A stretch of 64,000 nt of DNA from Paenibacillus sp. SYP-B4298 (GTDB taxonomy: Bacteria; Bacillota; Bacilli; Paenibacillales; Paenibacillaceae): assembly GCF_027627475.1 (NCBI RefSeq), contig NZ_CP115484.1, positions 4,596,501 to 4,660,500 of the forward strand, read 5' to 3'. How positions within the stretch are numbered: the stretch's first letter is position 1; the number at the start of each line of letters is the position of its first letter. A program made the translations under genes and the position numbers. Below, one piece after another: positions 15,704 through 40,642 of this stretch. The notes below the pieces were generated by a model. That model was not told where the DNA came from. It saw nothing but the letters and a program-made list of their open reading frames with translations, and did not search any database.

Positions 15704-15740
15704 AAAAAAAGAGCAGGCGCGCACATGCACGCTAGCTCTT
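15704..15740 (-). terminator. Intrinsic terminator between ywlE and rpiB
   Basis: On the minus strand, AAGAGC..GCG....CGC...GCTCTT followed by seven T residues. It separates the ywlE transcript from rpiB-ywlG-glyA. Confidence 0.85.
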
Positions 15741-15870
15741 GCCCAGGCGACCGGCCGTATCATCCGATGCTCCATCGTGGTTACCCACTTCCGTCGCCAG
15801 TTACACCGGATCTGTCTTTGATATTCTCATCATAACGGAAATCGCAGCCAAAATCAATCATCGATCGCGC

Positions 15871-19458: not shown

Positions 19459-20172
19459 CTACATTCTATGTCTCCACTCATCCTGCAGCACGCCATATTT
19501 CGTCTTCATACGGGACAGAATATTGATCCATCGTTCGGCAAACAATCCCAGAAAAAACACATTGCTCAGGGCATGCGCCAAATCAAAATAGAAGCTGGCT
19601 GCATAGACGCTGGCAAAGACAGGCCAGGTCAGCTCGCCGAAGTAGCCGATCAGATACCATATATTCATGATCCAGCCGAACACAAAGCCCCAGATCAAGC
19701 CAAATGCCATCTTGCCCCACCGCTGCAGCATCCACCCCTGATGGCGCAGCAATCCCGCTGTAAAGCCCATCATGCCCCAGCAAAACATCTGCCACGGCGT
19801 CCACGGCCCTTGCCCCAAAAACAGGTTGGAGACGACCGCAGCAACGCTGCCGATGATGAAGCCGACCTCTGGCCCCAGCACCAGCGCACTGACAATGATG
19901 ACGAACGAGGTCGGCTGCACGCTTGGAAGCGACACGAACGGCACACGTCCGATTGCGGCGATAGCGGACAGCACCGCGATCATTACCATGCTCTCGGCAT
20001 GGAAGGAGCGACGCTCGAAGCGTACCCAGAAGGGCATCATGACCGCTGCCAGCATGAGCAGACTGAGCGGCAAATAATATTTCTCCCACCATAGCGCCGC
20101 CGCCAGCAGCACAAAGGCAATCGCAAACCCGCTTACATAGAGCGCTCGCCTAAGCCCAAGCCTTGCCTCCAT
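19459..20172 (-). CDS. ECF transporter S component, probable cobalamin/corrinoid-specific
   Basis: 237 aa, about six membrane segments. The segment VQPTSFVIIVSALVLGPEVG, followed by SNLFLGQGPWTPWQMFCWGMMG, is the ECF S-component pattern I associate with corrinoid S components of the CbrT/CblT kind. S components bind the vitamin and topple in the membrane. The start overlaps the ATPase gene by 40 nt (ATG at 20172, GAGGAGG upstream). It is the last gene of the set that starts behind the cobalamin riboswitch about 10 kb upstream. The specificity is inferred from that riboswitch and the DUF4430 partners. Confidence 0.85.
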   Translation of the reverse strand: MEARLGLRRALYVSGFAIAFVLLAAALWWEKYYLPLSLLMLAAVMMPFWVRFERRSFHAESMVMIAVLSAIAAIGRVPFVSLPSVQPTSFVIIVSALVLGPEVGFIIGSVAAVVSNLFLGQGPWTPWQMFCWGMMGFTAGLLRHQGWMLQRWGKMAFGLIWGFVFGWIMNIWYLIGYFGELTWPVFASVYAASFYFDLAHALSNVFFLGLFAERWINILSRMKTKYGVLQDEWRHRM

Positions 20173-22028
20173 CTGCCCACATCCTCCTCAGTTATCAGCT
20201 CAGGCCATCTGCCGCCCGCCGCGCGCTGAATGGCTGTTGTGTAGAAATAGTTTTGCCTGAAAAATTCGCCGGTCGCCTCTGGCCCGATCATCTGTCCATC
20301 GAACAGCAGCGCGCAGCGCGTAGCATAGCGGGCGGCAAACTCTACATCATGGCTGACCATGACAATCGTGCGCCCGCCGCGGCGCCACCGCTCCAGCAGC
20401 TCCGCCAGCCGATGCTTCTGATACGGATCAAGTCCCTTAGTCGGCTCATCCAGCAGCAGCACTTGCGGGTCAGCGAGCAGCACCAGCGCCAGCGCCACCT
20501 TCTGCTGCTGTCCGCCACTCAGATCATGAGGATGCGCATGCAGGAGCGGCTCCAGTCCCAGCAGCCCCTGCAGCTCATCGAGCCGCCGCTTCTGCTCCTG
20601 GGCAGGCAGCCCAAGCCGCTCTAACCGATCATCGAGCAGTTCCTTGACCGTATCGCGGTTGAAATAGAGCAGCGGGTTCTGAGCCAGATAGCCAAGCTGC
20701 TCCATCCGCTCCTGCAGCTTCCACTTCGCCAGCGGACGGCTGGCCAGCTCCACATTCCCGCGCTGAGGCTTCAGCAAGCCAGCCAGCAGGCGCAGCAGTG
20801 TCGACTTGCCCGCTCCGTTGCCACCCATCACCGCCAGCAGCTCGCCAGCTTGCACCTCGAAGGAGCAGCCGTGCAGCAGAAAGGGCCCCTCCTTCTCATA
20901 CTGGAAGAAGATCGAGCGGCAGGCTAGCACGGCTGCACGATCCGCTCCTATATCCGCCGCAGCCCGCTCGCCCAGCCTGCTGTCCGCTCCTCTGCTACCT
21001 GCTCGCACGCTGCCTTCTTGGCCGAAGCCGCCTTGCTCTTCCCGGCTATCCTGCGTCTGCTGCTGACTCTCGCGCGATGCGTCTCCTGCCTGCTCAGCCT
21101 CTCTCGTAGCGCGGTCACCGCTCATGCTCTTGCCTGCCGCGCCGGGCAGTTCCGGGCCACGAGTCCTCTCGTCGCCAGTTCCCGCACGCTGCTGATCCGC
21201 CAGCGCAGCGAGCCAGGCTTTGCCCTCGCGCACCGTCAGCGGCAGCCCTGCGCCCGGAGCGCCAGCCTGCAACGCCATCCGACTCACGGATGGCAGCAAC
21301 GGCAGCAGCGCCTCCTCGCCGCGGCTGGCGATCCGCTCGATGACCTCGCGGGGCGTCCCCTTGTCGCAGATCGTCCCCTGCGCGAACACACATACCGAGG
21401 TCGCCAGTTGGAAGAGCTCCTCCAGCCGATGCTCCGCGATGATGATCGTCAGCGACAGCTCCTGATTGAGCCGCTGCAGCACCTGCACGAATTCCTTGGC
21501 GGCGATCGGATCAAGCTGTGCTGTCGGCTCGTCCAGCAGCAGCACCTTCGGCCGCATCATTAATACCGAGGCAAGGTTCAGCAGTTGCTTCTGCCCGCCG
21601 GACAGCTCATGCACTGATTGCCGCAGCCAGCTCTCCATTCCAAGGAAGGAGACCATCTCTGCCATCCGGCGCTGAATGACTGCAGGCGGCAGATTGAGAT
21701 TCTCCAGAGCGAAGGCCAGCTCCTGATGCACATTGCCCATGACGATCTGCGCATCGGGGTGCTGGAACACCATGCCGATCTCGGCGGCTGCCCGCATAGG
21801 GGACAGCGCGGCAATCGGCTGCCCTTCATAGACAATTTCGCCGCTGCGATGGCCTTCCGGCCACACCTCCCGCTTGAGCTGGCGCAGGAAGGTCGTCTTG
21901 CCCGAGCCTGTCGCACCGCACAGCAGGAGAAACTCCCCTTCTGCGATCGTCAGCGAGATGTCCGACAGGGCAGGCACCGTCTGCTCCGGGAAGGTAAATG
22001 TTACATGTTCGATCTGATATTGCGCCAT
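20133..22028 (-). CDS. ecfA: ECF transporter ATPase, fused tandem ABC domains (EcfA-EcfA')
   Basis: 631 aa with two complete ABC ATPase domains in one chain. Domain 1 (about 1-235): GATGSGKTT, LSGGQKQLL, VLLLDEPTAQ. Domain 2 (about 370-600): GGNGAGKST, LSGGQQQKV, VLLLDEPTKGLD. They are joined by an unusually long charged low-complexity linker (about 265-365, rich in Gly, Glu, Arg, Gln). It powers the ECF module with EcfT. It overlaps ecfT by 28 nt and the S-component gene by 40 nt. A fused ATPase is known in some group I ECF systems. Confidence 0.94.
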   Translation of the reverse strand: MAQYQIEHVTFTFPEQTVPALSDISLTIAEGEFLLLCGATGSGKTTFLRQLKREVWPEGHRSGEIVYEGQPIAALSPMRAAAEIGMVFQHPDAQIVMGNVHQELAFALENLNLPPAVIQRRMAEMVSFLGMESWLRQSVHELSGGQKQLLNLASVLMMRPKVLLLDEPTAQLDPIAAKEFVQVLQRLNQELSLTIIIAEHRLEELFQLATSVCVFAQGTICDKGTPREVIERIASRGEEALLPLLPSVSRMALQAGAPGAGLPLTVREGKAWLAALADQQRAGTGDERTRGPELPGAAGKSMSGDRATREAEQAGDASRESQQQTQDSREEQGGFGQEGSVRAGSRGADSRLGERAAADIGADRAAVLACRSIFFQYEKEGPFLLHGCSFEVQAGELLAVMGGNGAGKSTLLRLLAGLLKPQRGNVELASRPLAKWKLQERMEQLGYLAQNPLLYFNRDTVKELLDDRLERLGLPAQEQKRRLDELQGLLGLEPLLHAHPHDLSGGQQQKVALALVLLADPQVLLLDEPTKGLDPYQKHRLAELLERWRRGGRTIVMVSHDVEFAARYATRCALLFDGQMIGPEATGEFFRQNYFYTTAIQRAAGGRWPELITEEDVGRWRQGLGLGERSM

Positions 22029-22906
22029 CTCAGCACCTCTCTAGCATCCATTACAACCGGCGTCAGCACGAAGCCGACAAAGCAGACATAATGCATTACG
22101 GTAAGATAAGAAAAATCAGGCGGCAGCAGCTTGGGATAGACCGAGTAACGCCCCAGCCCCGCCGCCGCTCCCGCTATCGTCGCCAATCCTGTGCCGCCCA
22201 GCCACCAGAGCGCCAGCTTGTCGCGACGTTCCATTCGGTAGACGAGCGCATAGCTGCGCTTGCCTAGCCCATAGCCTCTGGAGCGCATCGACATGCCCGT
22301 CTGCAGCGCCTCCTCCAGCGACCAACTGACGAGCGTGTGCAGCGTGTCCATCGCTTCCTTCGCCTGAAGCCATTTTTTCTTCTTATAATGAAAATAACCC
22401 TGTGACCGCTGCACCTGAATAATCTCCTTCATCCTCCGCTTGAGCAGCGGCACGAAGCGCATCGCGACCGTAATGACAAAGGCCGACCTGGGCGCTACTC
22501 TGGCGAACAGATATAAGAATCTGCCAGGGGTAATGACCTCGTTGTAGCCGATGAATGCAATGAGCACTGTCAGCAGAGAGACGGCGAGCATCGCGCCGTA
22601 GGCGATCGACTCCAGCGTGACCGGCAGATCGCGGAAATAGAACAGGATCGTCCGTCCGCGGCTCGTAATGAGCGGATTGGCGATCAGGATGACGAGCGCC
22701 AGCAGCACATAGTAAGGGAGCGGACGGATTAGCCCGCGCGCTCCCCCTTGGAACCCGGCGACTGCGGTCACGACCAGCAGCAGCGTTAGCAGATAGACGG
22801 GATGCTTGAGCATCATCGCCGCCGCGAACAGGAATACGAAATAGCCAAAAGCCAGAGCCGGGTGCAGCGAATAGAAGCCGCCCGGCCAATTATTCTTCTT
22901 TTCCAT
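22001..22906 (-). CDS. ecfT: ECF transporter T component
   Basis: About 301 aa from the ATG at 22906, inside the end of the upstream lipoprotein gene (17-nt overlap); the ribosome site is weak. Hydrophobic segments in the first half are followed by a cytoplasmic coupling region and the motif MRSRGYG, matching the Ala-Arg-Gly/Ser coupling motif of EcfT (here Ser-Arg-Gly). The scaffold joins the S component to the ATPases. The frame is open for 62 codons upstream, but that part is out of family and overlaps the DUF4430 domain. Confidence 0.9.
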   Translation of the reverse strand: MEKKNNWPGGFYSLHPALAFGYFVFLFAAAMMLKHPVYLLTLLLVVTAVAGFQGGARGLIRPLPYYVLLALVILIANPLITSRGRTILFYFRDLPVTLESIAYGAMLAVSLLTVLIAFIGYNEVITPGRFLYLFARVAPRSAFVITVAMRFVPLLKRRMKEIIQVQRSQGYFHYKKKKWLQAKEAMDTLHTLVSWSLEEALQTGMSMRSRGYGLGKRSYALVYRMERRDKLALWWLGGTGLATIAGAAAGLGRYSVYPKLLPPDFSYLTVMHYVCFVGFVLTPVVMDAREVLRWRNIRSNM

Positions 22907-23993
22907 CCCACAGACCGCCCATCTCGACCCCGAGATCATTGCCCAGATCCTCGGTATAGCGCCATTCAATATGCTGTCCGGCCTTGACCGTCCATACCCC
23001 GGCTCCGCGGTTCGGATATTTGCCGTTAATATTGTACATCCAGCCGCTGCCGGAGCCGTAGTCAAATTCATATATATTGTCGATGCCTTCAATATAGGCT
23101 GTCGCGCCGCGACCGCGGAATTCCATATGAATCTTGTTCTCCCGCGTGACCCGCTTCAGCACATCCAGCACGGTATCCTCCTGCTCGATCTCCACTTCCG
23201 TCTTCGCGAGTATATCGCCGACATCCGACGGCCCTACGATCGAGACGGTCACTGTCGCCGCCTTCACCTCCGAAGCAGCAGGCTTGCTGCCCTTAGCAGC
23301 AGCATCGCCAGTGCCTGCGGCTGCGCCTGATGGCGGCACGCTCTTGCCGTCTGCCGCCCCGCTCGTCGCGGCCTTGCTGTCTCCAGCCTTGTCTGACGAG
23401 CCCGCGACGGAGCCGCCAGCACCAGGCTTGCTCCCTGACGACGAGCCTTCGCCAGTCGTCGGCTTCGCCTTGCCGCCATCGGCTGCGCCGGCCTTGCTGC
23501 TGCCCGCGGGCTCACTGCCAGCCGCGGAGGGCTTGGCCCCGGCCTTACTGCCTTCCGCAGCAGGCTGCTTCGCGGTCGTCCCCTCCTGCGGCTTCGCCTC
23601 TGCCCGGCCGGCTTGGGCTGCGTCAGCAGGCACAGCCTCGCCGCCAGCACCGGACGCCGCGGTCGCATCAGCGCCGCTCGCCCCGGCAGCAGACGCTTCG
23701 CCTTCGCTATCTCCGCCAGCCGCCGCACTCGCTTCGCTGTCACCGGCTGCTCGGACATCGCTGTCGCCCGCATCATTCACGCTCGCGCCATTGGCGTCTT
23801 GCCGGGCGTCAGTCGCACTGGACACCTCGCCCTTGTCCGGCAGGTTGGCCGCAGAGCCAGCAGCCAGCTTGCCTGCCCCCGTCCCGCTAGCTGGCTGCTC
23901 GGCTGTCACGCCTGCGCAGCCTGCCAGCAGCAGCAAGAGGAGGGCAAAGCTTGCCAGAAGCAGCGGGTATTTGCTTGCCCATCGCCTGTTCAT
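22890..23993 (-). CDS. DUF4430 (transcobalamin C-terminal-like) lipoprotein
   Basis: 367 aa. The lipoprotein signal has lipobox LLAGC (Cys about residue 26). An Ala/Gly/Ser/Lys-rich spacer follows (about 30-240), then a DUF4430 domain (about 245-360) with the hallmark GSGWMYNINGKYPNRGAG and HIEWRYTEDLG. DUF4430 corresponds to the C-terminal beta domain of animal transcobalamin and intrinsic factor (InterPro transcobalamin-like C-terminal). It is probably tethered to the membrane outer face and delivers corrinoid to the S component (inference). The long spacer would let the domain reach into the wall. It overlaps ecfT by 17 nt. Confidence 0.85.
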   Translation of the reverse strand: MNRRWASKYPLLLASFALLLLLLAGCAGVTAEQPASGTGAGKLAAGSAANLPDKGEVSSATDARQDANGASVNDAGDSDVRAAGDSEASAAAGGDSEGEASAAGASGADATAASGAGGEAVPADAAQAGRAEAKPQEGTTAKQPAAEGSKAGAKPSAAGSEPAGSSKAGAADGGKAKPTTGEGSSSGSKPGAGGSVAGSSDKAGDSKAATSGAADGKSVPPSGAAAGTGDAAAKGSKPAASEVKAATVTVSIVGPSDVGDILAKTEVEIEQEDTVLDVLKRVTRENKIHMEFRGRGATAYIEGIDNIYEFDYGSGSGWMYNINGKYPNRGAGVWTVKAGQHIEWRYTEDLGNDLGVEMGGLWDGKEE

Positions 23994-24057
23994 CGGTATC
24001 CCCCGTTCTCATCCATACACGTCTTCTTTAGCTTCTCACCCTGCTTGGCAGCTTCTG

Positions 24058-27000
24058 TCAGGCCGCTGGCTGCTCTGTGCGAGCCGCCTGCTGCTGCTGA
24101 AGCTGCAGCAGCAGCACTACTGCCAATTCCCTTGTTACAGGAGCTTCCGGATAGACATTCCCCTTCGCTCCGGGCAACAGATTCTGGTTATAGAAATAGA
24201 CCACCGATCGCTCCGCCCACGGAGCCACCAGCTTCAGATCATCCGGGAGCAGGTCGTCATCCGTAATGACAGCATCGGCGAAGCCGAACGCCCGACCCAG
24301 CATGACCATCATCTCCTGCCGGGTAATGGCCTCATTTGGCGTGAACATGCCTTTGCTGCCCCCTTGCACCAGTCCTGCGCGGGTAGCTGCCATAATCGGA
24401 GACGCATACCATTGCGTATTCATTACATCAGTGTATACCGAATCGTGTGGTTGTTCAATCGCCAATCCGAGCATTCTGACCAGCATCGACGCAAATTCCG
24501 CACGGGTCATATTCCGCTGCGGCTCAAACCTGCCCGATTGTCCAGCGCCTTGCACAATACCTGCTCCCACCGCTTTGCCGACAGCCTCCAGCGCCCATGC
24601 CGAGATCGATCCTTCGTCGCGGAAGCCCGTCACACTGCCATACAGCGGTGTTTCCTCCTCCGTCTGCTCCATCTGCTCTGCCTGTCCGCGAAGATCGGAG
24701 AAGTCATAGACCCCCTTCTCCTGCTGCAACGCCCGCTTGTAAGCGAGCAAGCCCAGCAGCCCTTGGTGAGTCGCCATATAATTGCTCGCTCCGCCCGCGG
24801 TGTGGGCAATTCCACCATCCTGATTGACAAAGCTTCGCAGATTACTATAGAGATTGCCCTGCGCCTTGACGAACCGCGGGTCGTCGAGCGGTATGCCGAG
24901 CGCAGACAAAGCAATGATCACCTGTGCGACGCTCTCGCTATTCTCCTGTCCCCATGCGTTCATGCCCCCACTGGCAAGCTGCTGACCGGACAGCCAGCTT
25001 AGCGCTTGGGACGTTGCCTCCATGACCCGCTCCTGCCTGCTGTATCCTGCGAGCGCCTGCAAGGCCATGGCCGTAACATCGACATCGCTTGCTCCACCCT
25101 CCTCCTTGCTGAGCGGGAAGCCTCCGTCTGTATTTTGCTGCTCCAGCAGCCACTCAACCAGCTTGCTCCGGCTCCATGCCGCTTCTGGCGGAATAACAGC
25201 CTGAACGGCATCCAGCGCCAGCAAGGCATAGATCGCGCCATTGGTGCCTTGAGCCGTCATGCGCTCGTTATTGTAGATTCTCTCGAGGAAATTATAGCCT
25301 GCAATATTGGTCGGGTCTTTGCCTATAGCGGCTGCCGCCAACGCTGTCCGCTCATAATCCGTCACCTTGCGGAAGCGCCCCCCGTTGTCACGGATGTACT
25401 GCTCCAGCGTCTCATAATAAGCTGCCGGAACCGTCCTGCCCGCACGCGCCAGCGCCAGCGCATCCCAATCATGGAATGGGTCATATTCGGCAAAGTTGGC
25501 GCTCGCTGCGATCCAGTCCGCCGCCCCTCGAATCGTCTCGTCCAGCTTCTCCGGCAGCACCTTCTTGCTCTCCTCCGCTTTGCTGCCCGCTACGCCTGTT
25601 CCTTGGCCTGCTGCCACCAGCTTGTTCTGAGCGTCTGTCAGCTCCTTCAGCAGCTTCACCAGCTCCAGGCTGTCGCTACCACTCTCGTTCAGCGTCTTCT
25701 CCGCCAGCTCCAGCACTCGCTTCAACTCGTTCCATGATGCGGCAGTATAGTCAGTCGCCACCAGGCCCTTGACCTCATTGACCTTGCTGCGCAGCACCTC
25801 TCTGTTCTGACCGCCAATGATCGAATCGAAGCCGCCGATATCCTTGCCCAGATCCTTCGTATAACGCCAGCGCAGCACATCGCCAGCCTGAAGGGTCTTC
25901 GTCCCCGCACTGTACGACGGATAGCTGTCGTTGACCGAATACATCCAGCCGCTATAGATGCCATGATCGAATTCGGACAGCCCATCGATTCCCTCTACAT
26001 ATAAGGAGTCCGCACTCCCTCTGTAGGCAACGGACTTGCCTTGGCTCTCCGCATACCGCTCCATAAGTGTAAATGCGGTATCCCCGCTCTTCAGCTCTAC
26101 ATAGACAGGCTCAATAATATAGCCCTGGCCGATCGATATTTTCTCAATCGACAGCTTCACTTGGGGCGCATGACCGCCGCCATTGCCAGGTGAGGGAGTA
26201 CCCGTGCCTGGGTTCGTGCCCGGATCGGTTCCGGGATCAGTTCCGGGGTTCGTACCAGGATCGGTTCCGGGGTCGGTTCCGGGGTTTGTACCCGGATTCT
26301 CTCCTCCCGGTTCATCCAGAGCGTAGGTCACAAACCGGCCAAATGCATTCGTCTGTACGATCAGACTGCCATTGTCCTCATAAGCATACATATCCTGCGT
26401 TGGATCATTGGCGCGCGGCACCTGCTTGAAGAGGTCATCGCTTCCCCAGAAGCCAGCCTGCAGCTTCCCGTGGCCCGCAAACTTCAATGTCGCTTGCGCC
26501 TTCAATTCCTTGAATGACGGCCCCGACAGCTCGATGGCGGTGCCGATCGACACCACCTTAGCCGGGGCAGCGTCCGCCTCGATGGCCGCTGTCAGCTCTT
26601 CGTTCGACAGACTTGAGAGCATCGGCAGTTGGAAGAGCGCTCCTTTGCCGCCAGTCGTGCGCGGCCAGCTTAGCGAGACATCGCCATAGGTGAGCTCCAA
26701 CTTCGGAATGCGGCTCCCCAGCGTCTGCAGCCCTATAGGCGCGGTATGATCCTGCGGAAGAGTAATGCTCAGCTCCGAATTTCTCGGCTCGACCACAATC
26801 GATAGGCCGGAGCCGAGCAGATAAGGGGTCAGTGTCACCTTCACCCTGGGGCTGACAATATACAGCGTGCTGTACTCGGAATCATCCGCTGTGCCCTCCG
26901 CATCGCTCATGTCATACAGCTTCGGCTTCCCTGTCAGGAAGCGCTCATACGCATTGAGCGCCAGCATGGCCTGATGGGTCGCTATGTAGCTAACCTTTTG

Positions 27001-28188
27001 GTCCAGCTCATGTTTGAACCCGCCAGACGTGTCGAGATGCGCGATCAGTGCATCGATGGCGGTTCTGCCTAGCTTCTGGAACCTTGCATCGCTAGCTGGA
27101 TCAATGCCGAGGCTGGTCAAGGCGATGATGACTTGTGCGCTGCTCTCGCTTGATTCACCAGGGGAGAGCACGGAGCCGAAGCCGCCGGTGTCCCGTTGTA
27201 TCGAGGACAGCCAGGCAAGGGCGCTATCTACCGCCTGCTTCACCTGCGGACGATCCGTATAGCCCGACAGCGCCTGAAGCGCCATGGCGGTCGTATCGAC
27301 ATCCTCCGTCTGATTGATCAGGAAGGCCCCTTCACTCGACTGCATGGTCAGAAGGCGGGCGATCAGTTCGTCCCTGCCGATGTCCGCCGCGGCAGGCACC
27401 TCATAATGGCGTGTATCCAGCGCGATCAGGGCAAAGGTGAGCGCATTGGCAGCCTCTGCCACCATGCCATGACGGATGAACTTGTCGATCAGATCATAGC
27501 CGCCAACATTGCGCGCATCCTTGCCGATGGCCGTCACGGCCATCGCGATCCTCTCCGGGTCGGTAGCCTTGGAGAAGTCGCCCCCTACCTCGATAACGCT
27601 GCTCCGCACATAATCATAGTAGGGCGATTCCGGTAGAGTCAGACCCGAGCGCACCAGCGCCATGGCATCCCAATCATTAAACGGATCATAAGCGTTGTAC
27701 GCCTTCCTGTCCACGATCCACTTGCCGGCGCCTTCAATAAGCGCGCGCAGCTCCTTCAGCTCAAGAGGTGCGCTCGCGTCTCCAGCCTGAGTTAGGTCGC
27801 CCTCCGCCTGCGATGGCAGAGCCGACTCAGGCTGCGTGCCCTCTACGGTATCGACCGGAGCAGTCCCCGTATCCGGTTGGAGCACTGCCTCCTCGCCCGG
27901 CTCCAATTCCGCGCCAGGCGCCGAGGCACTTGCCCCGTCTGTCTCAGACGCTTCTGTCCCAGCCTCTGCTTGCCCGGCAACAGACTGCTCGTCTGGCAAG
28001 CTTGCCGTCGACTGCTCGCCTGACGACCCACCCTCTGACTGCTGTGTGTCAGTAGTGGAGGTTCCCTCCTGCTCAATGCCTGCCAGCTCCTGTACGGCCG
28101 CCGCACCAAGCGCTGGCTGCAGCCCCGTAACAGCCAGCACTAGCGCCAGCCAGAGCGCCAGCATTCTGCGCCCGAATAATGTCTTCAT
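24058..28188 (-). CDS. SLH-anchored surface protein with two alpha/alpha-toroid domains and DUF4430 (transcobalamin-like)
   Basis: 1376 aa; ATG at 28188 with AAGGAGAGGG upstream. Layout in order: signal peptide (1-29); acidic Ser/Gln/Glu linker (30-145); terpenoid-cyclase-type alpha/alpha toroid 1 (about 145-430; repeats ending TTAMALQAL, AQVIIALTSLG); beta region (about 435-630); PGTDP/PGTNP repeat linker (about 635-675); DUF4430 (about 680-780; YSGWMYSVNDSYP, RWRYTKDLGKD); FIVAR-like helical segment (about 785-865); toroid 2 (about 880-1170; VTAMALQALAG, AQVIIALSALG); three SLH modules (about 1190-1365). Toroid plus DUF4430 is the architecture of animal transcobalamin and intrinsic factor. 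It is likely a wall-held corrinoid-binding protein feeding the ECF system. Corrinoid binding is inferred, not shown. Confidence 0.85.
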   Translation of the reverse strand: MKTLFGRRMLALWLALVLAVTGLQPALGAAAVQELAGIEQEGTSTTDTQQSEGGSSGEQSTASLPDEQSVAGQAEAGTEASETDGASASAPGAELEPGEEAVLQPDTGTAPVDTVEGTQPESALPSQAEGDLTQAGDASAPLELKELRALIEGAGKWIVDRKAYNAYDPFNDWDAMALVRSGLTLPESPYYDYVRSSVIEVGGDFSKATDPERIAMAVTAIGKDARNVGGYDLIDKFIRHGMVAEAANALTFALIALDTRHYEVPAAADIGRDELIARLLTMQSSEGAFLINQTEDVDTTAMALQALSGYTDRPQVKQAVDSALAWLSSIQRDTGGFGSVLSPGESSESSAQVIIALTSLGIDPASDARFQKLGRTAIDALIAHLDTSGGFKHELDQKVSYIATHQAMLALNAYERFLTGKPKLYDMSDAEGTADDSEYSTLYIVSPRVKVTLTPYLLGSGLSIVVEPRNSELSITLPQDHTAPIGLQTLGSRIPKLELTYGDVSLSWPRTTGGKGALFQLPMLSSLSNEELTAAIEADAAPAKVVSIGTAIELSGPSFKELKAQATLKFAGHGKLQAGFWGSDDLFKQVPRANDPTQDMYAYEDNGSLIVQTNAFGRFVTYALDEPGGENPGTNPGTDPGTDPGTNPGTDPGTDPGTNPGTGTPSPGNGGGHAPQVKLSIEKISIGQGYIIEPVYVELKSGDTAFTLMERYAESQGKSVAYRGSADSLYVEGIDGLSEFDHGIYSGWMYSVNDSYPSYSAGTKTLQAGDVLRWRYTKDLGKDIGGFDSIIGGQNREVLRSKVNEVKGLVATDYTAASWNELKRVLELAEKTLNESGSDSLELVKLLKELTDAQNKLVAAGQGTGVAGSKAEESKKVLPEKLDETIRGAADWIAASANFAEYDPFHDWDALALARAGRTVPAAYYETLEQYIRDNGGRFRKVTDYERTALAAAAIGKDPTNIAGYNFLERIYNNERMTAQGTNGAIYALLALDAVQAVIPPEAAWSRSKLVEWLLEQQNTDGGFPLSKEEGGASDVDVTAMALQALAGYSRQERVMEATSQALSWLSGQQLASGGMNAWGQENSESVAQVIIALSALGIPLDDPRFVKAQGNLYSNLRSFVNQDGGIAHTAGGASNYMATHQGLLGLLAYKRALQQEKGVYDFSDLRGQAEQMEQTEEETPLYGSVTGFRDEGSISAWALEAVGKAVGAGIVQGAGQSGRFEPQRNMTRAEFASMLVRMLGLAIEQPHDSVYTDVMNTQWYASPIMAATRAGLVQGGSKGMFTPNEAITRQEMMVMLGRAFGFADAVITDDDLLPDDLKLVAPWAERSVVYFYNQNLLPGAKGNVYPEAPVTRELAVVLLLQLQQQQAARTEQPAA

Positions 28189-28255
28189 ATCGTGTCCCTC
28201 TCCTTAACCTTAGGTTTACTATGTATGCTGTTCCCGCTCTTTAGCGTTTGTTTTG

Positions 28256-28425
28256 GCAGGGCGTGTCTTCCGGCCCGCTCATCGGGCATCGTTCGCCACC
28301 CTTTTCTCCTGCGCTGCGTCACATCTTATTCACGTCCCCTTGTTCTCTTGACGAACCCCCGGCATGCCTGCGGCAGAGTGCCCCGCACCGAACGAGCATT
28401 CAATTCCACCCGCTCCCTTCGGAGC
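28256..28425 (-). repeat. Diverged copy of an intergenic repeat element
   Basis: Read on the plus strand this stretch (AGGGCGTGTC... TTCTCTTGACGAACCCCCGG... GCCTGCG) aligns by eye with the reverse complement of the element at 40478-40642. It shares the terminal GGCGTGTC, the GGGCATC block, CTTTTC, GCTGCGT and the central GACG-CCCCCGG block. It lies in the 446-nt gene-free gap between the SLH gene start and the upstream DUF4430 gene. The far end is poorly defined. The rest of the gap holds only a modest GC-rich hairpin near 28570-28620, a possible terminator of the upstream gene. Confidence 0.55.
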
Positions 28426-28634
28426 TTGAGGACACCGCCAGGGCCTCCTGCGCTATTTTGTCGTTCAAATCGTGGATAAGCGTCCAACTGCCCTCTCTCT
28501 TATGAACACGATTTAAAAGACAAAACACTCTGCGCCCTCCTTGCCGTCAAGAGCGGGCTTCCAGTTAAGCCAGGATGCCTGCCGACAGCAGGCGGCTGGT
28601 GTTGCCAGCCTGCCTCCTGTCCAGCCAAGGTAGG

Positions 28635-29432
28635 TCAGTGAACTGTAATTACAATCGGTATCGGACGAACCAGATTATAGGAGCTGCTGCCGAACTTGTT
28701 CGCAGTAATGCTGTAGGTTCCCGGCGTAGCAAAGGTAATGGTTGCTTGCCCGCTAGCATTGGTCGTATAGGAGCTGGCAGCGCCGTTAATACTGATCGTT
28801 GCACCGGCAATCGGCCCGTATGGCAGCGGTGTCCCCCAGCTTGCGGGCTGACCCGTCACAGTGAAGGTTACGCTCTGTCCAGCAGAAATAGACGTCGAAG
28901 ATGCAGAGATCGCGCCAAAATCATACGTGGAGTAGTCGCCAATGTAGAACACCTCGACCAGATCATTGGCCTGCAACGTCTGATCGCCCACTCCGACCAG
29001 CGGCAGTACCCCATTCACCTTATACATCCAGCCGGAATTCGGGCCTTGATCCTGCTCCGCCTCCCCGGCAATTGCGGAGATATAGTTCCCGCCATAATTG
29101 ACTTCGATGACATCCGGGTCAGTCACATCATATCCATTTTGCTCCAGCACCTTCAGTATGGCGTGAATAGCAAGCGGAGTTGAGCTGGTCTGATACCAGT
29201 TGCCCACACTGTTATTGCCTACAACATCGGTAATATCATATGCTTCCACGTCGATCTCCTGTAGCGGAATAACGGTACTGCTCCAGCCCTCAATTCTTAC
29301 CTGTACCGGAATTTCACCGCTGCTCGCCGCGGCAACGCCGGAGGCCAGGGGCAATCCGGGGTGTACAACAGCCAGCAACAGGAGCAGGCTAAACCATAGG
29401 GATAGCGTTTTTTTCCATAATTTTGTTGTCAT
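28635..29432 (-). CDS. Secreted DUF4430 protein with Ig-like C-terminal domain
   Basis: About 265 aa from the ATG at 29432 (AAAGGA 9 nt upstream; ATG at 29438 also possible). Signal peptide TLSLWFSLLLLLAVV... ends near an Ala-rich site. A DUF4430 domain follows (about 35-150; NSGWMYKVNGVLPLVG, then LVEVFYIGDY). The C-terminal about 100 residues form a beta-rich Ig-like or carboxypeptidase-regulatory-like domain (AGATISINGAASSYTTNASG). There is no visible anchor, so it is predicted to be released or wall-associated. It is the first gene after the cobalamin riboswitch. It may act as a soluble corrinoid scavenger handing over to the anchored proteins (inference). Confidence 0.8.
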   Translation of the reverse strand: MTTKLWKKTLSLWFSLLLLLAVVHPGLPLASGVAAASSGEIPVQVRIEGWSSTVIPLQEIDVEAYDITDVVGNNSVGNWYQTSSTPLAIHAILKVLEQNGYDVTDPDVIEVNYGGNYISAIAGEAEQDQGPNSGWMYKVNGVLPLVGVGDQTLQANDLVEVFYIGDYSTYDFGAISASSTSISAGQSVTFTVTGQPASWGTPLPYGPIAGATISINGAASSYTTNASGQATITFATPGTYSITANKFGSSSYNLVRPIPIVITVH

Positions 29433-29635
29433 CGTCATCTTTCCTTTCCATCCATGAAAATAAGTACCGAGCTTGCCTCTACATGCGCGCATAACACAAA
29501 AACACCTTTCCCCAAGCGCGAGCCTGAAAAAAAGATGTGAAATACAAGCCGGCCGGGCTCCAAGCCAAATAAGCCGCCCCAGGCAGACCGTTCTATCTCA
29601 CCCCCTTCTCATCCTCGTGAGTGTGGCAAAGCTCC

Positions 29636-29822
29636 ATCATGGCAGGTCTCCTGGCTTGGCATCATTGCATGAGCTGCACCTTCCCGTTATACACAGTGGC
29701 AATTGCAGCCTGCTCCGCTTCACAGTGGCGGGACCGCGCCGGGATTGCACCGGCCTTCCCTATTAAGCCTGATCTCCCCTGCCGCCCATAGGGACGACAG
29801 ATATGGAAATAAGGCACCATCA
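29636..29822 (-). ncRNA. Cobalamin (AdoCbl-type) riboswitch
   Basis: On the minus strand the order is GGTGCC (near 29818), AATAGGGAAG, GCCGGTGCAATCCCGGC, then GCGGTCCCGCCACTGTGA, and at the 3' end GCCAGGAGACCTGCC. These are the B12-box and core elements of the family. The remaining leader to the DUF4430 start (about 200 nt) has a GC-rich helix near 29555-29585 and a seven-T run near 29530, which could be the expression platform (inference). It should lower expression of the downstream transport genes when cobalamin is plentiful. Confidence 0.95.
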
Positions 29823-29866
29823 TGGGATATGAAGTTATGTAACCTAGCAACTTCCAATCGCCTAAA

Positions 29867-29894
29867 AGTATACTATACTGACAGGATAAATCAA
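29867..29894 (-). promoter_or_regulatory. Sigma-A-type promoter driving the riboswitch
   Basis: On the minus strand, TTGATT (29894-29889), a 16-nt spacer, then TATACT (29872-29867). It is 45 nt upstream of the riboswitch 5' element. Confidence 0.65.
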
Positions 29895-29952
29895 TAACAA
29901 TTAACGTTTAGTTGACGATGAGTGCAGACAACTTGTATCCATACAAAAACAA

Positions 29953-29981
29953 CCGACCCAAAAACAATGTTTTTGGGTCGG
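29953..29981 (-). terminator. Terminator after the giant adhesin gene
   Basis: ccgacccaaaaaca and tgtttttgggtcgg are perfect inverted arms around one base. On the minus strand the stem is followed by TTGTTTTTG. It lies about 85 nt after the adhesin stop and separates it from the cobalamin-regulated genes. Being symmetric, it could also act on the plus strand, where no gene reads in. Confidence 0.85.
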
Positions 29982-30064
29982 CTGCCAGGGAGAGGTGCAC
30001 TACAGGCAAAGCCGCAGTGCCGCCCGGAAATGTCGGACACTCCCTTTAAGATTGCAAAAATGTA

Positions 30065-33000
30065 TTACCTTCTTCGGCGTACAGCCGGACTGCGTCCAAG
30101 CAGCAGCCATGCGCCTGCAGCTATCGCCAGCATACCCATAATGAGCGTTGTATAGGAAGCTTCCTCGCCCGTTCTAGGCAGCTCGGCACCACTGCCGGAC
30201 AGCGCTTGACCGCCATTCACTTCACGGTCGCCATTGCTGCCTGCCCCGGAATGCTCGGCTCCAGAGCGGTCGATGCCTGTTGAATCACCGTCACCGTTCT
30301 GGCCGTTGCCGGAATGCTCAGCACCGTCGTGGCCGCCTGCACCATTGCCGGATGGGTCTGGCGTTGTGCTTGAGCCGTCGCCATTGCCACCATTTCCGTT
30401 ATCCTCTGTGATCGGGTGATCCTCATCGTCCGAAGAATCCGGCTGCTCTGGCTCCTGATCACCAGGCTCCGGTGTCCCTGTCCGTGGTGTCTCGATTCCT
30501 GGATTTTCTGTCCCAGGTGTTTCACCTTCAGGAGTTTTGGTGCCTGGCGTCTGAGTTCCAGGTGTTTCCCCTCCAGGTGTTTTCGTTCCTGGCGCTTCAT
30601 TGCCTGGTGTTTCATTTCCTGGTGTTTCATTCCCCGGCGTTTCTCCTGGCTGACCAGGATCAGGCGTTGTGCCGCCTTCACCACCTTCGACTGGTGTGCT
30701 TGGCTCCGGGTTCGTCGGTTGGCTCGGATAATACACATTGTACTGGTTCGTTACCGTCAGTTCGACAGCCGCTTGCGGATTGAAGTCGATCGTGAACCGT
30801 ATAGGTGTCGCATCCAGTCTGTAGCCGCTTGGGGACTTGGTCTCCACAAGCTCATAATTGCCCGGCTTCAGTCCGTCTACAACCAGTTGACCGTTATCAT
30901 CGGTTTCCAGTCCAGTATGAACGACCGTACCGTCTGCCTGGCGCAGCGTGAACTGTGCGCCCTTCAGCATACGTGTCTTATTATTCTGGTCTACCTTGGT
31001 CAATTGTACAGAGCCGGTCGTCTGCTCATTCGACACTTGAACCCTAAGTGTCTCCTGCTGCCCCTCTACAATTGTAAATGTAATCGGCGCTGCAAGCCGG
31101 TCATAGCCCGCCGGAGCAGCCGTCTCTACCAATTGATAGGTACCAGGCTTCAACTGATCTGCAACAATCAGACCGTCGTTGCCTGTCGTCAGACCAGAGT
31201 AGACCTCTACACCCGCTTCATTCATAATCGCGAACACTGCGCCCGCCAGCGGAGCATTATGATTGTCGGCATCCACCTTCAACAGCTCCACTGCGCCTGG
31301 TGTCAGCGTGTTCTCGAATGAAATGCTGAGCGTCTGCTGCTGGCTTTTTACAATGTCAAATGAAATCGGTGTGCTGTCCAGCTCGTAGTTGGCTGGCGCC
31401 TTCGTCTCGATCAGCTCGTATCGCCCTGGCACAAGCTCATCAATGAGGAGCTTGCCCTGCGCATTCGTCGTCAGGCCGCTGGCCACTTCAACGCCTTGCG
31501 CATTCAACAGCTTGAACTCCGCTCCCGCCAGCACGCGATCTGCATGATCCGCATCCCGCTTCGTCAGCTCCACCGCGCCGCGATCCAGCTTATTCGCCAC
31601 TGTCAGCTCTACAGCCTGCTGCGGATTGAACGGTATAGTGAAGTTTATCAGTGTCGGAGATACCACGTAATGCTCCGGTGCCGCGGTCTCCACCAGGGCG
31701 TAGACCCCCGGCTTCAAACCAGCTACCCGCAATTTGCCATCCTGGTCGGTCGTCAGGCCGCTTCTCAGTGTCTGACCCGACCCGTCCCGCAGCTCGAATA
31801 CGGCACCTGGCAAGGTTAAGCTCGCGTCCAGCTCATCGACCTTGGTCAGCTCTACGGCTCCGGTCATCCGTGCATTGGACTTGCTCACTGCAAGCATCTC
31901 CTGCTGGTTCTTCACGATCGTAAAGGCGACAGGTGTCGTGTCCAGCACATAGCCTGGAGCAGCACTCGTCTCTACGAAACGGTAGTCGCCCGGCAACAGA
32001 TCGCTCACCGTGATCTTGCCGCTCGCATCCGTCGTCAGCCCGGAGAGCATCATCTGATTTTGCGCATCGCGCAGCTCGAACACGGCCCCGGCGATGACCA
32101 TTCCGGTAACATCCGCGTCCTGCTTCGTCAGCTCAACCGCGCCGCGAATCAGTTCATTCGTTACCGTCCGCTCTACAACAGCCGTCTGGCTGTAGCTGAT
32201 CGTGAAGGTAACTGGTGTCTCATCCAGCTTGTAGTGCTCCGGTGCCTTCGTCTCCACCAGCTTGTAGCTGCCTGGACGAAGATGGTTCACTACCAGCTTG
32301 CCTTCTGCATTAGTCGTCAAGCCACTCGCAAGCTCTACATCCTGCGCATTCAGCAGCTTGAACTCCGCGCCTTCCAGTGGAAGGGTGTTATCCTGTGCGT
32401 CAACCTTCGTCAGCTCTACTGCGCCATCGATGATCTCATTGGCTGCGACAACCTGCTTCACAGTCTGCTGCCCCTTATCGATGGTGAAGGCGACAGGCGT
32501 TGTCAGCATCACATAGTGCTGTGGCGACTTCGTCTCGATGAAGCTATATGCTCCTGGCTTCAAGCCCTGAACCGTGATCTTGCCGGTGCTGTCAGTTACC
32601 AGATTCTCATAGCCAGGTACGGTAGCGCCAAGCGCATCGACCAGCTTGAACTCTGCACCTGCAAGTACAATACTCTGCTCATCCGCATCGACCTTCGTCA
32701 GCTCGACAGAGCCTGGTGTCAGCGTATTGCTGTGCTGCAAGGTCGCTGCTGCCGTCTGACCCAGCGCAATCGCGAACGGAATCGGCGTAGTATCCCGCTC
32801 ATAATTTGCCGGTGCTGCCGTCTCGATCAGGCGATAGTGCCCAGGACGCAGCCCGCTGGCTGCCAGCTTGCCCTGCTGATCCGTCGTCAGGCTGGAGCGG
32901 ATGACATTCCAGTGATCGGCTGCTGCATCGTATTGCTCCAGGCTGTAGACTGCCCCCTCCAGCACGATACTGTGATCCTCGCTATCCACCTTGGTCAGCT

Positions 33001-36000
33001 CCACCGAGCCCAGTTGGATCGCATTGCTGAACGTCTTCGTTACCAGTTGCTGCTGGTCACGGACAATCTCGATGTCGATCGGCGTGCTGTCCGCTACATA
33101 GCCGAACGGCGCGCTCGTCTCCACCAGCTTGTAGCTACCCGGCTGGAGGTCGGTTACCGTCAGCTTGCCTTGCGCATTCGTCGTCAAGCTGGAGCGAATC
33201 TCTGTATTTGCCGCATCCAACAGCTTGAACGCTGCTCCCGCAAGCGGCCGCTGGTCGAAGCTGTCGATCTTCGTCAGCTCGAAGCCGCCGGATATAAGCG
33301 TATTGCGTGCTTCTACCTGCAAGGCTGACGCCTGGCTTCTAACAATTTCGAACCGAATCGGAGTGGCATCCAGCACGTAATCTGCAGGCGCCTTCGTCTC
33401 GATCAGCTCGTATCGCCCTGGCACAAGCTCATCAATGAGGAGCTTGCCCTGCGCATTCGTCGTCAGGCCGCTGGCCACTTCAACGCCTTGCGCATTCAAC
33501 AGCTTGAACTCCGCTCCTGCCAGCACGCGATCTGCATCATCCGTATCGACCTTCGTCAGCTCCACCGCACCGCGATCCAGCTTATTCGCCACCGTCAGCT
33601 CTACAGCCTGCTGCGGATTGAACGGTATAGTGAAGCTTACCGGTGTAGTCGATACCACGTAATGCTTCGGTGCCGCGGTCTCCACCAGGGCGTAGACCCC
33701 CGGCTTCAAACCAGCTACCCGCAATTTGCCATCCTGGTCGGTCGTCAGGCCGCTTCTCAGTGTCTGATCCGACCCGTCGCGCAGCTCGAATACGGCACCT
33801 GGCAAGGTTAAGCTCGCGTCCAATTCATCGACCTTGGTCAGCTCTACGGCTCCGGTCATCCGTGCATTGGACTTGCTTACTGCAAGCGTCTCCTGCTGGT
33901 TCTTCACGATCGTAAAGGCGACAGCTGTCGTGTCCAGCACATAGCCTGGCGCAGCACTCGTCTCTACGAAACGGTAGTCGCCCGGCAACAGATCGCTCAC
34001 CGTGATCTTGCCGCTCGCATCCGTCGTCAGCCCGGAGAGCATCATCTGATTCTGCGCATCGCGCAGCTCGAACACGGCCCCGGCGATGACCATTCCGGTA
34101 ACATCCGCGTCCTGCTTCGTCAGCTCAACCGCGCCGCGAATCAGTTCATTCGTTACCGTCCGCTCGACAACAGCCGTCTGGCTGTAGCTGATCGTAAAGG
34201 TAACAGGGGTCTGATCCAGCCTGTAGTGCTCCGGTGCCTTCGTCTCGATCAGCTTGTAGCTGCCTGGACGAAGATGGTTCACCACCAGCTTGCCTTCTGC
34301 ATTAGTCGTCAAGCCACTCGCAAGCTCTACATCCTGCGCATTCAGCAGCTTGAACTCCGCTCCTTCCAGCGGAAGGGTATTATCCTGTGCGTCAACCTTC
34401 GTCAGCTCCACTGCGCCATCGATAAGCTCATTGGCTGCGTCAATCTGCTTCGCAGTCTGCTGTCCCTTATCAATAGTGAAAGCTAGAGGCGTAGCCGACA
34501 ACATATAGTGCTGTGGCGCCTTCGTCTCGATGAAGCTATATGCTCCTGGCTTCAAGCCCTGAACCTTGATCTTGCCAGCGCTATCGGTTACCAGATTCTC
34601 ATAGCCAGGTACGGTAGCGCCAAGCGCATCGACCAGCTTGAATTCTGCCCCTTCAAGCACCAGGCTCGGCTCATCCGCATCGACCTTCGTCAGCTCCACC
34701 GAGCCAGGTGTCAGCGTATTGCTGTGCTGCAAGGTCGCTGCTGCCGTCTGACCCAGCGCAATCGCGAATGGAATCGGCGTAGTATCCAGCTCATAATCTG
34801 TCGGTGCTGCCGTCTCGATCAGGCGATAGTGCCCCGGACGCAGCCCACTGGCTGCCAGCTTGCCCTGCTGATCCGTCGTCAAGCTGGAGCGGATGACATT
34901 CCAGCGATCGGCTGCAGCATCGTATTGCTCCAGGCTGTAGACTGCCCCCTCCAGCACGATGCTGTGATCCTCGCTATCCACCTTGGTCAGCTCCACCGAG
35001 CCAAGCTGGATCGCATTGCTGAACGTCTTCGTTACCAACTGCTGCTGGTCACGGTCAATCTCGATGTCGATTGGCGTGCTGTCCGCTACATAGCCGAACG
35101 GCGCGCTCGTCTCCACCAGCTTGTAGCTGCCCGGCTGGAGGCCGGTCACCGTCAGCTTGCCTTGCATATTCGTCGTCAAGCCCGTGCGAACCTCTGCACC
35201 AGCCGCATCCAATAGCTTGAACTCGGCTCCCGCAAGCGGCCGCTGGTCGAAGCTGTCGGCCTTCGTCAGCTCGAACCCGCCGGATATAAGCGTATTGCGT
35301 GCTTCTACCTGCAAGGCTGACGCCTGGCTTCGTACAATTTCGAACCGAATCGGAGTGGTGCGCAGCTCATAATCTGCAGGAGCTTTAATCTCTACAAATT
35401 GATATAGCCCCGGACGCAGATGCTCAACTAGAAGCGTTCCATTCGCATCTGTGGTCAGCACACTGCTGACACCTGGAACCGGGGTTCCATTCCGGTATTC
35501 CAGTCTGAACTCAGCGCCTGCCAGCTTTACCGCGGTATTGTACTGATCCACCTTGGTCAGCTGGACAGAGCCTTCGATCAGATCATTCTCCACCTCTACG
35601 GTTGTCGTCTGTAGATTATGAACAACAACTTGATGCGGAGTCGCATCCAATTGATAATGCTGTGGCGCCTTCGTCTCCACCAGCTTGTAAGTGCCAGCCG
35701 CCAAATCATTGATGAGCAGCATGCCCTGACTGTCCGTGGTGAAGGTCGCTGGCAACGGCTGACCTAGGCGGTCGGTCGTCACCCGAGCATCATGCTGATC
35801 CCGCAGCTCGAATTCCGCACCCGCGAGTAGCGATCCGTCGAATCGATCCACCTTAATCAGCTCGATTGCATTGCGAATCCGGGTATTGGTGAATTCGATC
35901 TGCAATGTCTGCTGCTGCCCTCTATCAATCGTAAACGGAATGGGCGTGCTGTTCACCAGATAGCCTGTCGGCGCTTGGGTCTCAACCAGCGAGTAGTCGC

Positions 36001-40453: not shown

Positions 40454-40477
40454 TTTCCATCTCCTCTCCGTTCTTAT

Positions 40478-40642
40478 TAGGGCGTGTCTGAACACTCTGA
40501 ACGGATCAGATCTGGCCGAATTTTCGTTCCAGGCAAGGCGCTTTTTCGCAGGCGTACCGGGGGTACGTCAAGAAAAGGCAACGCAGCATGGGGCGAAAAG
40601 GCGGGGAGAGATGCCCTTGAACGGGTGTTCAGACACGACCTA
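40478..40642 (+). repeat. 165-bp palindromic-ended repeat element (MITE/REP-like)
   Basis: Terminal inverted repeats of about 20 bp: TAGGGCGTGTCTGAACACTC at the left and the complement of TAGGTCGTGTCTGAACACCC at the right (2 mismatches). No reading frame of its own is visible. A central ccgggggtacgtc block is shared with the diverged copy near 28.3 kb. It fills almost the whole gap between the sortase stop and the adhesin start, so it may terminate one transcript or carry the promoter of the next. Confidence 0.8.

What the first reader, a model, noticed from the sequence alone, without database searches (positions are those of the whole stretch)
19459..29894. Cobalamin-riboswitch set pairing an ECF importer with exported transcobalamin/intrinsic-factor-like proteins
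A clear cobalamin riboswitch heads a run of six same-strand genes: a secreted DUF4430 protein, an SLH-anchored toroid-DUF4430-toroid protein, a DUF4430 lipoprotein, EcfT, a fused EcfA and an S component. The last four genes overlap. DUF4430 matches the C-terminal domain of animal transcobalamin and intrinsic factor, and the alpha/alpha toroid matches their N-terminal domain. Together this suggests a Gram-positive capture-and-relay route: soluble, wall-held and membrane-tethered binders handing corrinoid to an ECF S component. ECF transporters normally need no extracellular binding protein, so the arrangement is unusual.
Basis: partly seen in the sequence, partly recalled or inferred. Interest (0 to 1): 0.88.

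Follow-up and report, generated by a model that had tools for sequence, protein, structure and literature searches.

The report
Surface vitamin B12 capture-and-import operon
A Paenibacillus-type bacterium carries a vitamin B12-controlled operon that pairs a B12 importer with three exported proteins built partly like the human B12 carrier transcobalamin; it is a clear example of a widespread system predicted in 2007 but, as far as I could find, never tested for B12 binding.

Summary
A strong cobalamin riboswitch (RF00174, 91.7 bits), the only one in this complete 6.26 Mb genome, heads six same-strand genes: secreted DUF4430, toroid-DUF4430-toroid-SLH, DUF4430 lipoprotein, EcfT, fused EcfAA' and an S component whose only PDB match is the vitamin B12 S component CbrT. 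In 61 genomes of the family, 33 of 40 DUF4430 clusters have this riboswitch just upstream; across the phylum, 49 of 60 DUF4430 genomes have a cobalamin riboswitch (two Rfam families) at the cluster, and no other ligand riboswitch was found. Of 80 loci chosen by S component alone, 75 carry DUF4430. The predicted toroid1-DUF4430 structure has transcobalamin as its top PDB match over both domains, although toroid sequence resembles terpene cyclases and PF01122 is not met. So a corrinoid capture-and-import operon is well supported. It is not unusual: Burroughs et al. (2007) already described this domain pairing, surface anchoring, linkage to CbiO/CbiQ and B12 scavenging. Corrinoid binding and protein-to-protein hand-off remain unproven. 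One caution: the closest lactobacillus cluster (L. curvatus, S 61% identical, no riboswitch) seems orthologous to an L. sakei system reported to import heme.

The parts
29948..29986 (-). Terminator-like hairpin separating the operon from the upstream 3476-aa wall-protein gene
   Evidence: 18-pair stem followed by a T-rich tail
29867..29900 (-). Promoter-like hexamers ahead of the riboswitch (weak)
   Evidence: consensus scan, 9 of 12 matches; number found in region not clearly above shuffles
29624..29804 (-). Cobalamin riboswitch aptamer
   Evidence: RF00174, 91.7 bits, full-length model match; only copy in the genome
28635..29438 (-). Secreted DUF4430 protein with Big/PKD-like C-terminal domain (267 aa from ATG 29438)
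   Evidence: PF14478 62 bits, sub-threshold Big_3_5/PKD; signal peptide by eye
24058..28188 (-). Cell-surface protein: toroid 1 - beta domain - DUF4430 - FIVAR-like - toroid 2 - SLH (1376 aa)
   Evidence: Pfam; AF2 models A1 and A2
26899..27750 (-). Toroid 1 (about aa 147-430)
   Evidence: AF2 and VIA-align: squalene-hopene cyclase Z 23.4, intrinsic factor 2pmv_B Z 19.4 over 243 of 267 residues
25855..26085 (-). DUF4430 (SLBB, transcobalamin C-terminal-like) domain of the surface protein
   Evidence: PF14478 63.7 bits; paired with toroid 1 in the transcobalamin match
24709..25536 (-). Toroid 2 (about aa 885-1160), the best conserved toroid in the nearest relatives
   Evidence: bit scores; AF2 model A1
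24061..24603 (-). SLH repeats, wall anchoring
   Evidence: PF00395 93.5 bits; PDB match to Sap S-layer protein
22890..23993 (-). DUF4430 lipoprotein (lipobox LLAGC, long disordered linker, DUF4430 at 22953-23177)
   Evidence: PF14478 68.3 bits; gene directly before EcfT in the family loci
22001..22906 (-). EcfT, transmembrane component of the energising module (301 aa)
   Evidence: no Pfam hit; homolog of annotated EcfT in L. curvatus, 31% identity; conserved place in operon
20133..22028 (-). EcfAA', fused pair of ECF ATPases (631 aa)
   Evidence: TIGR04520 350 bits, two ABC_tran domains
19459..20172 (-). CbrT-type S component (237 aa)
   Evidence: PF12822 54.5 bits; only PDB hit 6fnp_A, E 8.1e-15

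Best explanation
This is a corrinoid (vitamin B12-type) acquisition operon. When intracellular cobalamin is scarce the riboswitch lets the genes be expressed. The secreted DUF4430 protein and the S-layer-anchored toroid-DUF4430-toroid protein concentrate corrinoid outside and within the wall, probably holding it between a toroid and a DUF4430 beta-grasp domain as transcobalamin does. The DUF4430 lipoprotein holds corrinoid at the membrane and presents it to the CbrT-type S component, which the fused ATPase and EcfT drive across the membrane to feed MetH. Shown here: gene content, riboswitch, conserved co-occurrence, CbrT homology, transcobalamin-like domain pairing in the predicted fold, MetH present and CbiC absent. 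Inferred: corrinoid binding by the exported proteins, the order of hand-off, and expression as one unit.
For: Riboswitch RF00174, unique in the genome. S component's only PDB match is 6fnp_A; the ECF-CbrT complex was shown to transport cobalamin and cobinamide (PMC5997447). In 61 family genomes 33 of 40 DUF4430 clusters have RF00174 upstream on the same strand within 5 kb, against about 0.1% expected per cluster. In the phylum 49 of 60 DUF4430 genomes have a cobalamin riboswitch at the cluster, including the separate Rfam family AdoCbl-II. Of 80 loci picked by S component alone: EcfT 77, EcfA 79, DUF4430 75, toroid 67, same-strand B12 box 59. Foldseek top hit of toroid1-DUF4430 is transcobalamin over both domains. 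MetH is present and CbiC absent in the genome. CbiC occurs in 3 of 30 DUF4430 genomes against 11 of 31 without, Fisher p 0.03.
Against: No binding data. Toroid sequence is closer to terpene cyclases than to transcobalamin and PF01122 is below cut-off. The L. delbrueckii ECF-CbrT complex works in E. coli (PMC5997447), so exported partners may be dispensable. L. curvatus has a 61%-identical S component in the same operon without a riboswitch. Some DUF4430 genes have no cobalamin link (L007, L070, L071, L073-L076).
Confidence: 0.82

Rival explanations
1. The importer carries heme or both tetrapyrroles, as reported for the L. sakei five-gene ECF system, and the exported proteins are heme binders.
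For: L. curvatus, sister species of L. sakei, has the five-gene order LPXTG-toroid, DUF4430, EcfT, EcfA, EcfS with S 61% identical to the window's and no cobalamin riboswitch. PMC7299338 mentions the report of a heme-specific ECF transporter in L. sakei. That it is this cluster is from memory; the paper is not held.
Against: The L. curvatus S groups with a plasmid S from a cobalamin gene region and sits inside a clade whose Paenibacillaceae members have cobalamin riboswitches. The window's operon is under a cobalamin riboswitch in a MetH organism without CbiC.
Confidence: 0.1
2. The importer carries corrinoid, but the exported DUF4430/toroid proteins are not obligate relay steps: they only widen capture, or help specific corrinoids or host-bound forms, or act in the wall in another way.
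For: The L. [quoted passage not shown] coli. Some riboswitch-controlled toroid-DUF4430 genes have no transporter beside them (L042, L062, L069).
Against: A DUF4430 gene accompanies the transporter in 75 of 80 loci chosen by the S component, and the lipoprotein gene directly precedes EcfT in the family loci, which argues for an intimate role.
Confidence: 0.35
3. The toroid domains are secreted terpene-cyclase-like enzymes rather than ligand-binding domains.
For: Best sequence-profile and structural scores for the toroids are terpene cyclases (squalene-hopene cyclase Z 23.4).
Against: They are exported and lie under a B12 riboswitch; the same fold is the N-terminal half of transcobalamin and intrinsic factor. 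Cyclase catalytic motifs were not examined.
Confidence: 0.04

Closest known systems
[quoted passage not shown] 2007, PMC1796856)
   Same: Secreted or surface SLBB (DUF4430) domains fused to alpha/alpha toroids and FIVAR, paralogous pairs in operons with CbiO/CbiQ-type genes, usually no B12 synthesis, predicted B12 scavenging
   Different: That text mentions no riboswitch, S-layer, lipoprotein or permease; here the S component is identified as CbrT-type and the riboswitch link is counted
ECF-CbrT of Lactobacillus delbrueckii (PDB 6FNP, PMC5997447)
   Same: S component homologous over 175 residues
   Different: There CbrT shares one energising module with seven other predicted S components and sits beside nrdJ and pduO; here a dedicated module and three exported partners
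Animal transcobalamin, intrinsic factor, haptocorrin
   Same: Toroid followed by DUF4430-type beta-grasp domain; top fold match over both domains
   Different: Extra beta domain inserted between them, a second toroid, SLH anchoring; PF01122 score below cut-off; cobalamin binding untested
CbrV/CbrU/CbrT plasmid locus of L. plantarum pMF1298-5 (PMC6722938)
   Same: T, A, S with toroid and DUF4430 genes beside cobalamin genes
   Different: Gene order differs; no SLH protein
L. sakei heme ECF system, cited in PMC7299338
   Same: By memory a five-gene ECF cluster; the L. curvatus counterpart has a 61%-identical S component
   Different: Reported ligand is heme; no cobalamin riboswitch in the L. curvatus locus
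BtuG/BtuH surface B12 binders of Bacteroidetes (PMC8941943)
   Same: Bacterial cell-surface B12 capture (abstract)
   Different: Bacteroidetes; their relation to DUF4430 was not tested here; no ECF importer

Membership tests
Cobalamin riboswitch regulon | RF00174 above gathering score directly upstream | tested here: met
   91.7 bits against 31.5
Cobalamin riboswitch regulon | Ligand-dependent switching of these genes | not testable with these tools
   needs in-line probing or reporter
CbrT-type S component | ECF S family domain and homology to CbrT | tested here: met
   PF12822 54.5 bits; 6fnp_A E 8.1e-15 as the only PDB hit
CbrT-type S component | Cobalamin binding and transport | not testable with these tools
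   biochemistry needed
Dedicated (group I) ECF transporter | A, T and S genes together in one operon | tested here: met
   overlapping genes; T 77, A 79 of 80 S loci
Dedicated (group I) ECF transporter | EcfT recognised by Pfam | tested here: inconclusive
   no Pfam hit, but 31% identical to annotated EcfT
PF14478 DUF4430 (SLBB, transcobalamin C-terminal clade) | Score above curated cut-off | tested here: met
   62, 63.7, 68.3 bits against 23.8; profile against human transcobalamin C-domain E 5e-4 over 86 columns, though HH probability only 13% with a single-sequence template
PF01122 eukaryotic cobalamin-binding family | Score above curated cut-off | tested here: not met
   12.6 bits against 25; 2 of 14 homologs reach E below 1, best 0.0029
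PF01122 eukaryotic cobalamin-binding family | Toroid followed by beta-grasp domain in one chain | tested here: met
   Foldseek top hit 8ixt E 2.7e-6 with alignment through both domains; 7qbg_C 340 residues aligned, model 2-640, Z 19.5, rmsd 14.3
PF01122 eukaryotic cobalamin-binding family | Conserved cobalamin-contact residues | tested here: inconclusive
   profile alignment of toroids to transcobalamin gave no usable alignment
L. sakei-type heme ECF system | Heme as substrate | not testable with these tools
   orthology suggested by L. curvatus locus; paper not held

The most novel reading that the evidence does not exclude
An ECF importer fed by a three-tier external relay (free, S-layer-bound and lipid-anchored DUF4430 proteins) that passes corrinoid from protein to protein to the S component, with the same module retuned to heme in Latilactobacillus after loss of the riboswitch. 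That would make it a bacterial counterpart of transcobalamin and the first ECF class with obligate extracellular binding partners.
Probability: 0.3. Interest if true: 0.65.

Novelty: new member of a known kind. Interest (0 to 1): 0.4.

Why it matters
If the exported proteins bind and hand over corrinoid, Gram-positive bacteria have a wall-spanning B12 capture chain comparable in role to the surface B12 binders of Bacteroidetes, and ECF transporters are not always free of external binding proteins. It also bears on the 2007 proposal that animals acquired transcobalamin-type proteins from such bacteria, and on whether one S-component family serves both B12 and heme. The system is common: at least 574 stretches encoding a relative of the S component in the species-level genome collection, and DUF4430 in 62 of 199 Bacillota genomes sampled.

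Tried and rejected
Searching the lipoprotein alone against PDB gave nothing. Profile searches of both toroid-DUF4430 alignments against PDB found terpene cyclases and thioester domains, not transcobalamin. hhalign of toroid profiles with human transcobalamin N-domain gave no alignment (the human sequence was recalled and then verified as 100% identical to 2bb5). VIA-align for the DUF4430-toroid2 model listed no transcobalamin in its 50 rows, although Foldseek did. The L. sakei heme paper is not held. I considered other ligands for DUF4430 clusters: cmscan of 30 of the otherwise unresolved loci found no riboswitch other than cobalamin families (one T-box in L098). I considered calling the pairing unusual or new and dropped it after the 80-locus survey and Burroughs 2007.
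Full report
OBSERVATION. Rfam finds RF00174 at 29804-29624 (91.7 bits), the only copy in the 6,256,982-base single-contig genome. Pfam finds DUF4430 (PF14478) above cut-off in the three exported proteins, SLH and toroid families in the 1376-aa protein, two ABC_tran domains in the 631-aa protein and PF12822 in the S component. EcfT has no Pfam hit; it is identified by position, by an SMRSRGYG motif and by 31% identity to an annotated EcfT. Overlaps are 17, 28 and 40 nt. A terminator-like hairpin at 29986-29948 closes the upstream gene. The 446-bp gap after the first gene is the only long spacing; the consensus scan found no promoter or terminator there, so one transcript is likely but not shown.

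LIGAND. The S component has a single PDB match, 6fnp_A, the CbrT subunit of a vitamin B12 ECF transporter (biochemistry in PMC5997447). The genome encodes MetH (L114) and a radical-SAM protein with a B12-binding domain (L113), and lacks CbiC. In the family, CbiC occurs in 3 of 30 genomes with DUF4430 and 11 of 31 without (Fisher p 0.03), a weak sign that uptake stands in for synthesis; the genomes are related, so the p-value is generous.

CONSERVATION. In 61 family genomes, 30 have DUF4430, forming 40 clusters; 33 have RF00174 upstream on the same strand within 5 kb, where about 0.1% per cluster is expected. The typical locus is riboswitch, one or more toroid/DUF4430/SLH proteins, DUF4430 lipoprotein, EcfT, EcfAA', S, with the lipoprotein gene directly before EcfT. 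The exceptions without riboswitch are the ~1750-aa toroid-DUF4430-SLH proteins of the window's genus (L007, L070, L071), G042:C57 and weak hits. In 199 Bacillota genomes, 62 have DUF4430. Of the 60 besides G000 and G013, 49 have a cobalamin riboswitch at the DUF4430 cluster, counted by hand; G179 and G229 have AdoCbl-II (RF01689) instead, and G253 has both. Of the other 11, four belong to one family (f54), four clusters are cut at contig ends and three are unexplained. No riboswitch for another ligand appeared in the 30 loci scanned. Starting instead from the S component in a named species collection, 80 loci gave EcfT in 77, EcfA in 79, DUF4430 in 75, toroid in 67 and a same-strand B12 box in 59. 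They span Paenibacillus, Bacillus, Sporosarcina, Oceanobacillus, Desulfosporosinus, Moorella and Lentilactobacillus, with single Armatimonadetes and Deltaproteobacteria metagenome bins.

STRUCTURE. AlphaFold2 models of toroid1-beta-DUF4430 (mean pLDDT 80.5) and DUF4430-FIVAR-toroid2 (79.5) are confident in the domains. For the first, Foldseek's best PDB match is rat transcobalamin (8ixt, E 2.7e-6), aligned through both domains across the inserted beta domain; terpene cyclases follow within a factor of two in E-value, matching the toroid alone. VIA-align gives transcobalamin 7qbg_C Z 19.5 over 340 residues (model 2-640; rmsd 14.3, so the relative domain placement differs or is not predicted) and intrinsic factor 2pmv_B Z 19.4 over 243 of 267 toroid residues, against 23.4 for squalene-hopene cyclase. 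By sequence the toroids match terpene cyclases and thioester domains, and PF01122 is below cut-off. The DUF4430 profile aligns over 86 columns to the transcobalamin C-domain (E 5e-4, HH probability 13%). So the two-domain plan is shared, membership of PF01122 by sequence is not met, and cobalamin-contact residues could not be compared.

PRIOR ART. Burroughs et al. 2007 (PMC1796856) already reported the transcobalamin C-terminal-type SLBB domain in low-GC Gram-positives, fused to alpha/alpha toroids and FIVAR, surface anchored, often as paralogous pairs in operons with CbiO- and CbiQ-like genes in bacteria lacking B12 synthesis, predicted to scavenge B12, and proposed its transfer to animals. 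Its text mentions no riboswitch, lipoprotein or S-layer. A published table uses the name 'additional lipoprotein component of putative cobalamin ECF transporter' (PMC9963975). CbrT, CbrU and CbrV names are in use (PMC6722938). The window is therefore a new, well-formed member of a predicted kind. The additions here are the counted link to two cobalamin riboswitch families, the CbrT assignment, and the fold match over both domains.

LIGAND CONFLICT. A tblastn of the S component against plasmids found Latilactobacillus curvatus CP117684 with 61% identity in a five-gene cluster LPXTG-toroid, DUF4430, EcfT, EcfA, S without a cobalamin riboswitch and with a Dyp-type peroxidase about 4.4 kb downstream. 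From memory, L. sakei lsa1836-1840, reported to import heme, is the corresponding cluster; PMC7299338 mentions a heme ECF report in L. sakei, but the paper itself is not held. In the S tree L. curvatus pairs with the L. plantarum plasmid S from a cobalamin region (99/93), inside a clade (100/99) whose Paenibacillaceae members carry the riboswitch operon. I read this as a possible change or widening of ligand in Latilactobacillus. It does not overturn cobalamin for the window, but it shows that genomic context alone cannot fix the cargo.

MECHANISM. Most likely: corrinoid is gathered by secreted and S-layer-bound DUF4430 proteins, concentrated at the membrane by the lipoprotein and imported by CbrT-EcfTAA', under riboswitch repression. 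The steps after 'importer of corrinoid' rest on domain likeness and gene order. The confidence given (0.82) is for a corrinoid acquisition operon with exported corrinoid binders; a true stepwise relay is less sure (see novel case), so the rival that the exported proteins are helpers rather than obligate steps overlaps with the best explanation rather than excluding it.

Noticed in passing
window 15734-15814 (-): ZMP/ZTP riboswitch (RF01750, 52.3 bits) ahead of rpiB, a DUF436 gene and glyA.
   Followed up: partly
G000:C1:1750971-1756154 (L007:6972-12155): A second, 1727-aa toroid/DUF4430/toroid/SLH protein in the same genome, with orthologs in two genus mates (L070, L071), without riboswitch or ECF genes nearby.
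   Followed up: partly
L073, L074, L075 (family f54): Small DUF4430 protein directly followed by a distant CbrT-like S component with no riboswitch; in L073 they sit among what look by eye like LarA, short-chain dehydrogenase and biotin-dependent decarboxylase genes, suggesting another ligand.
   Followed up: partly
L046, L067: Riboswitch-controlled toroid-DUF4430-SLH gene followed by a separate, divergent small S component (about 180 aa) without its own A and T genes.
   Followed up: no
L077, L088, L091: AdoCbl-II riboswitches (RF01689) found in three loci that carry DUF4430 genes, further support for a corrinoid role.
   Followed up: yes
L086, L095, L102, L103, L108: In several clostridial-type operons a separate toroid-SLH gene sits next to the S component, between EcfA and S or just after S.
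   Followed up: no
window 30065-40495 (-) and 40644-41249 (-): A 3476-aa repeat-rich wall protein with an LPRTG motif (by eye) and a sortase gene beside it, separated from the operon by a terminator-like hairpin.
   Followed up: no
L117 5348-5532 (-): Lentilactobacillus kefiri plasmid: cobalamin riboswitch ahead of a DUF5776 protein, a toroid-like protein annotated 'fucose-binding lectin II' and DUF4430, divergent from T-A-S; the homologous L. plantarum 'lectin' matches the toroid profile.
   Followed up: partly
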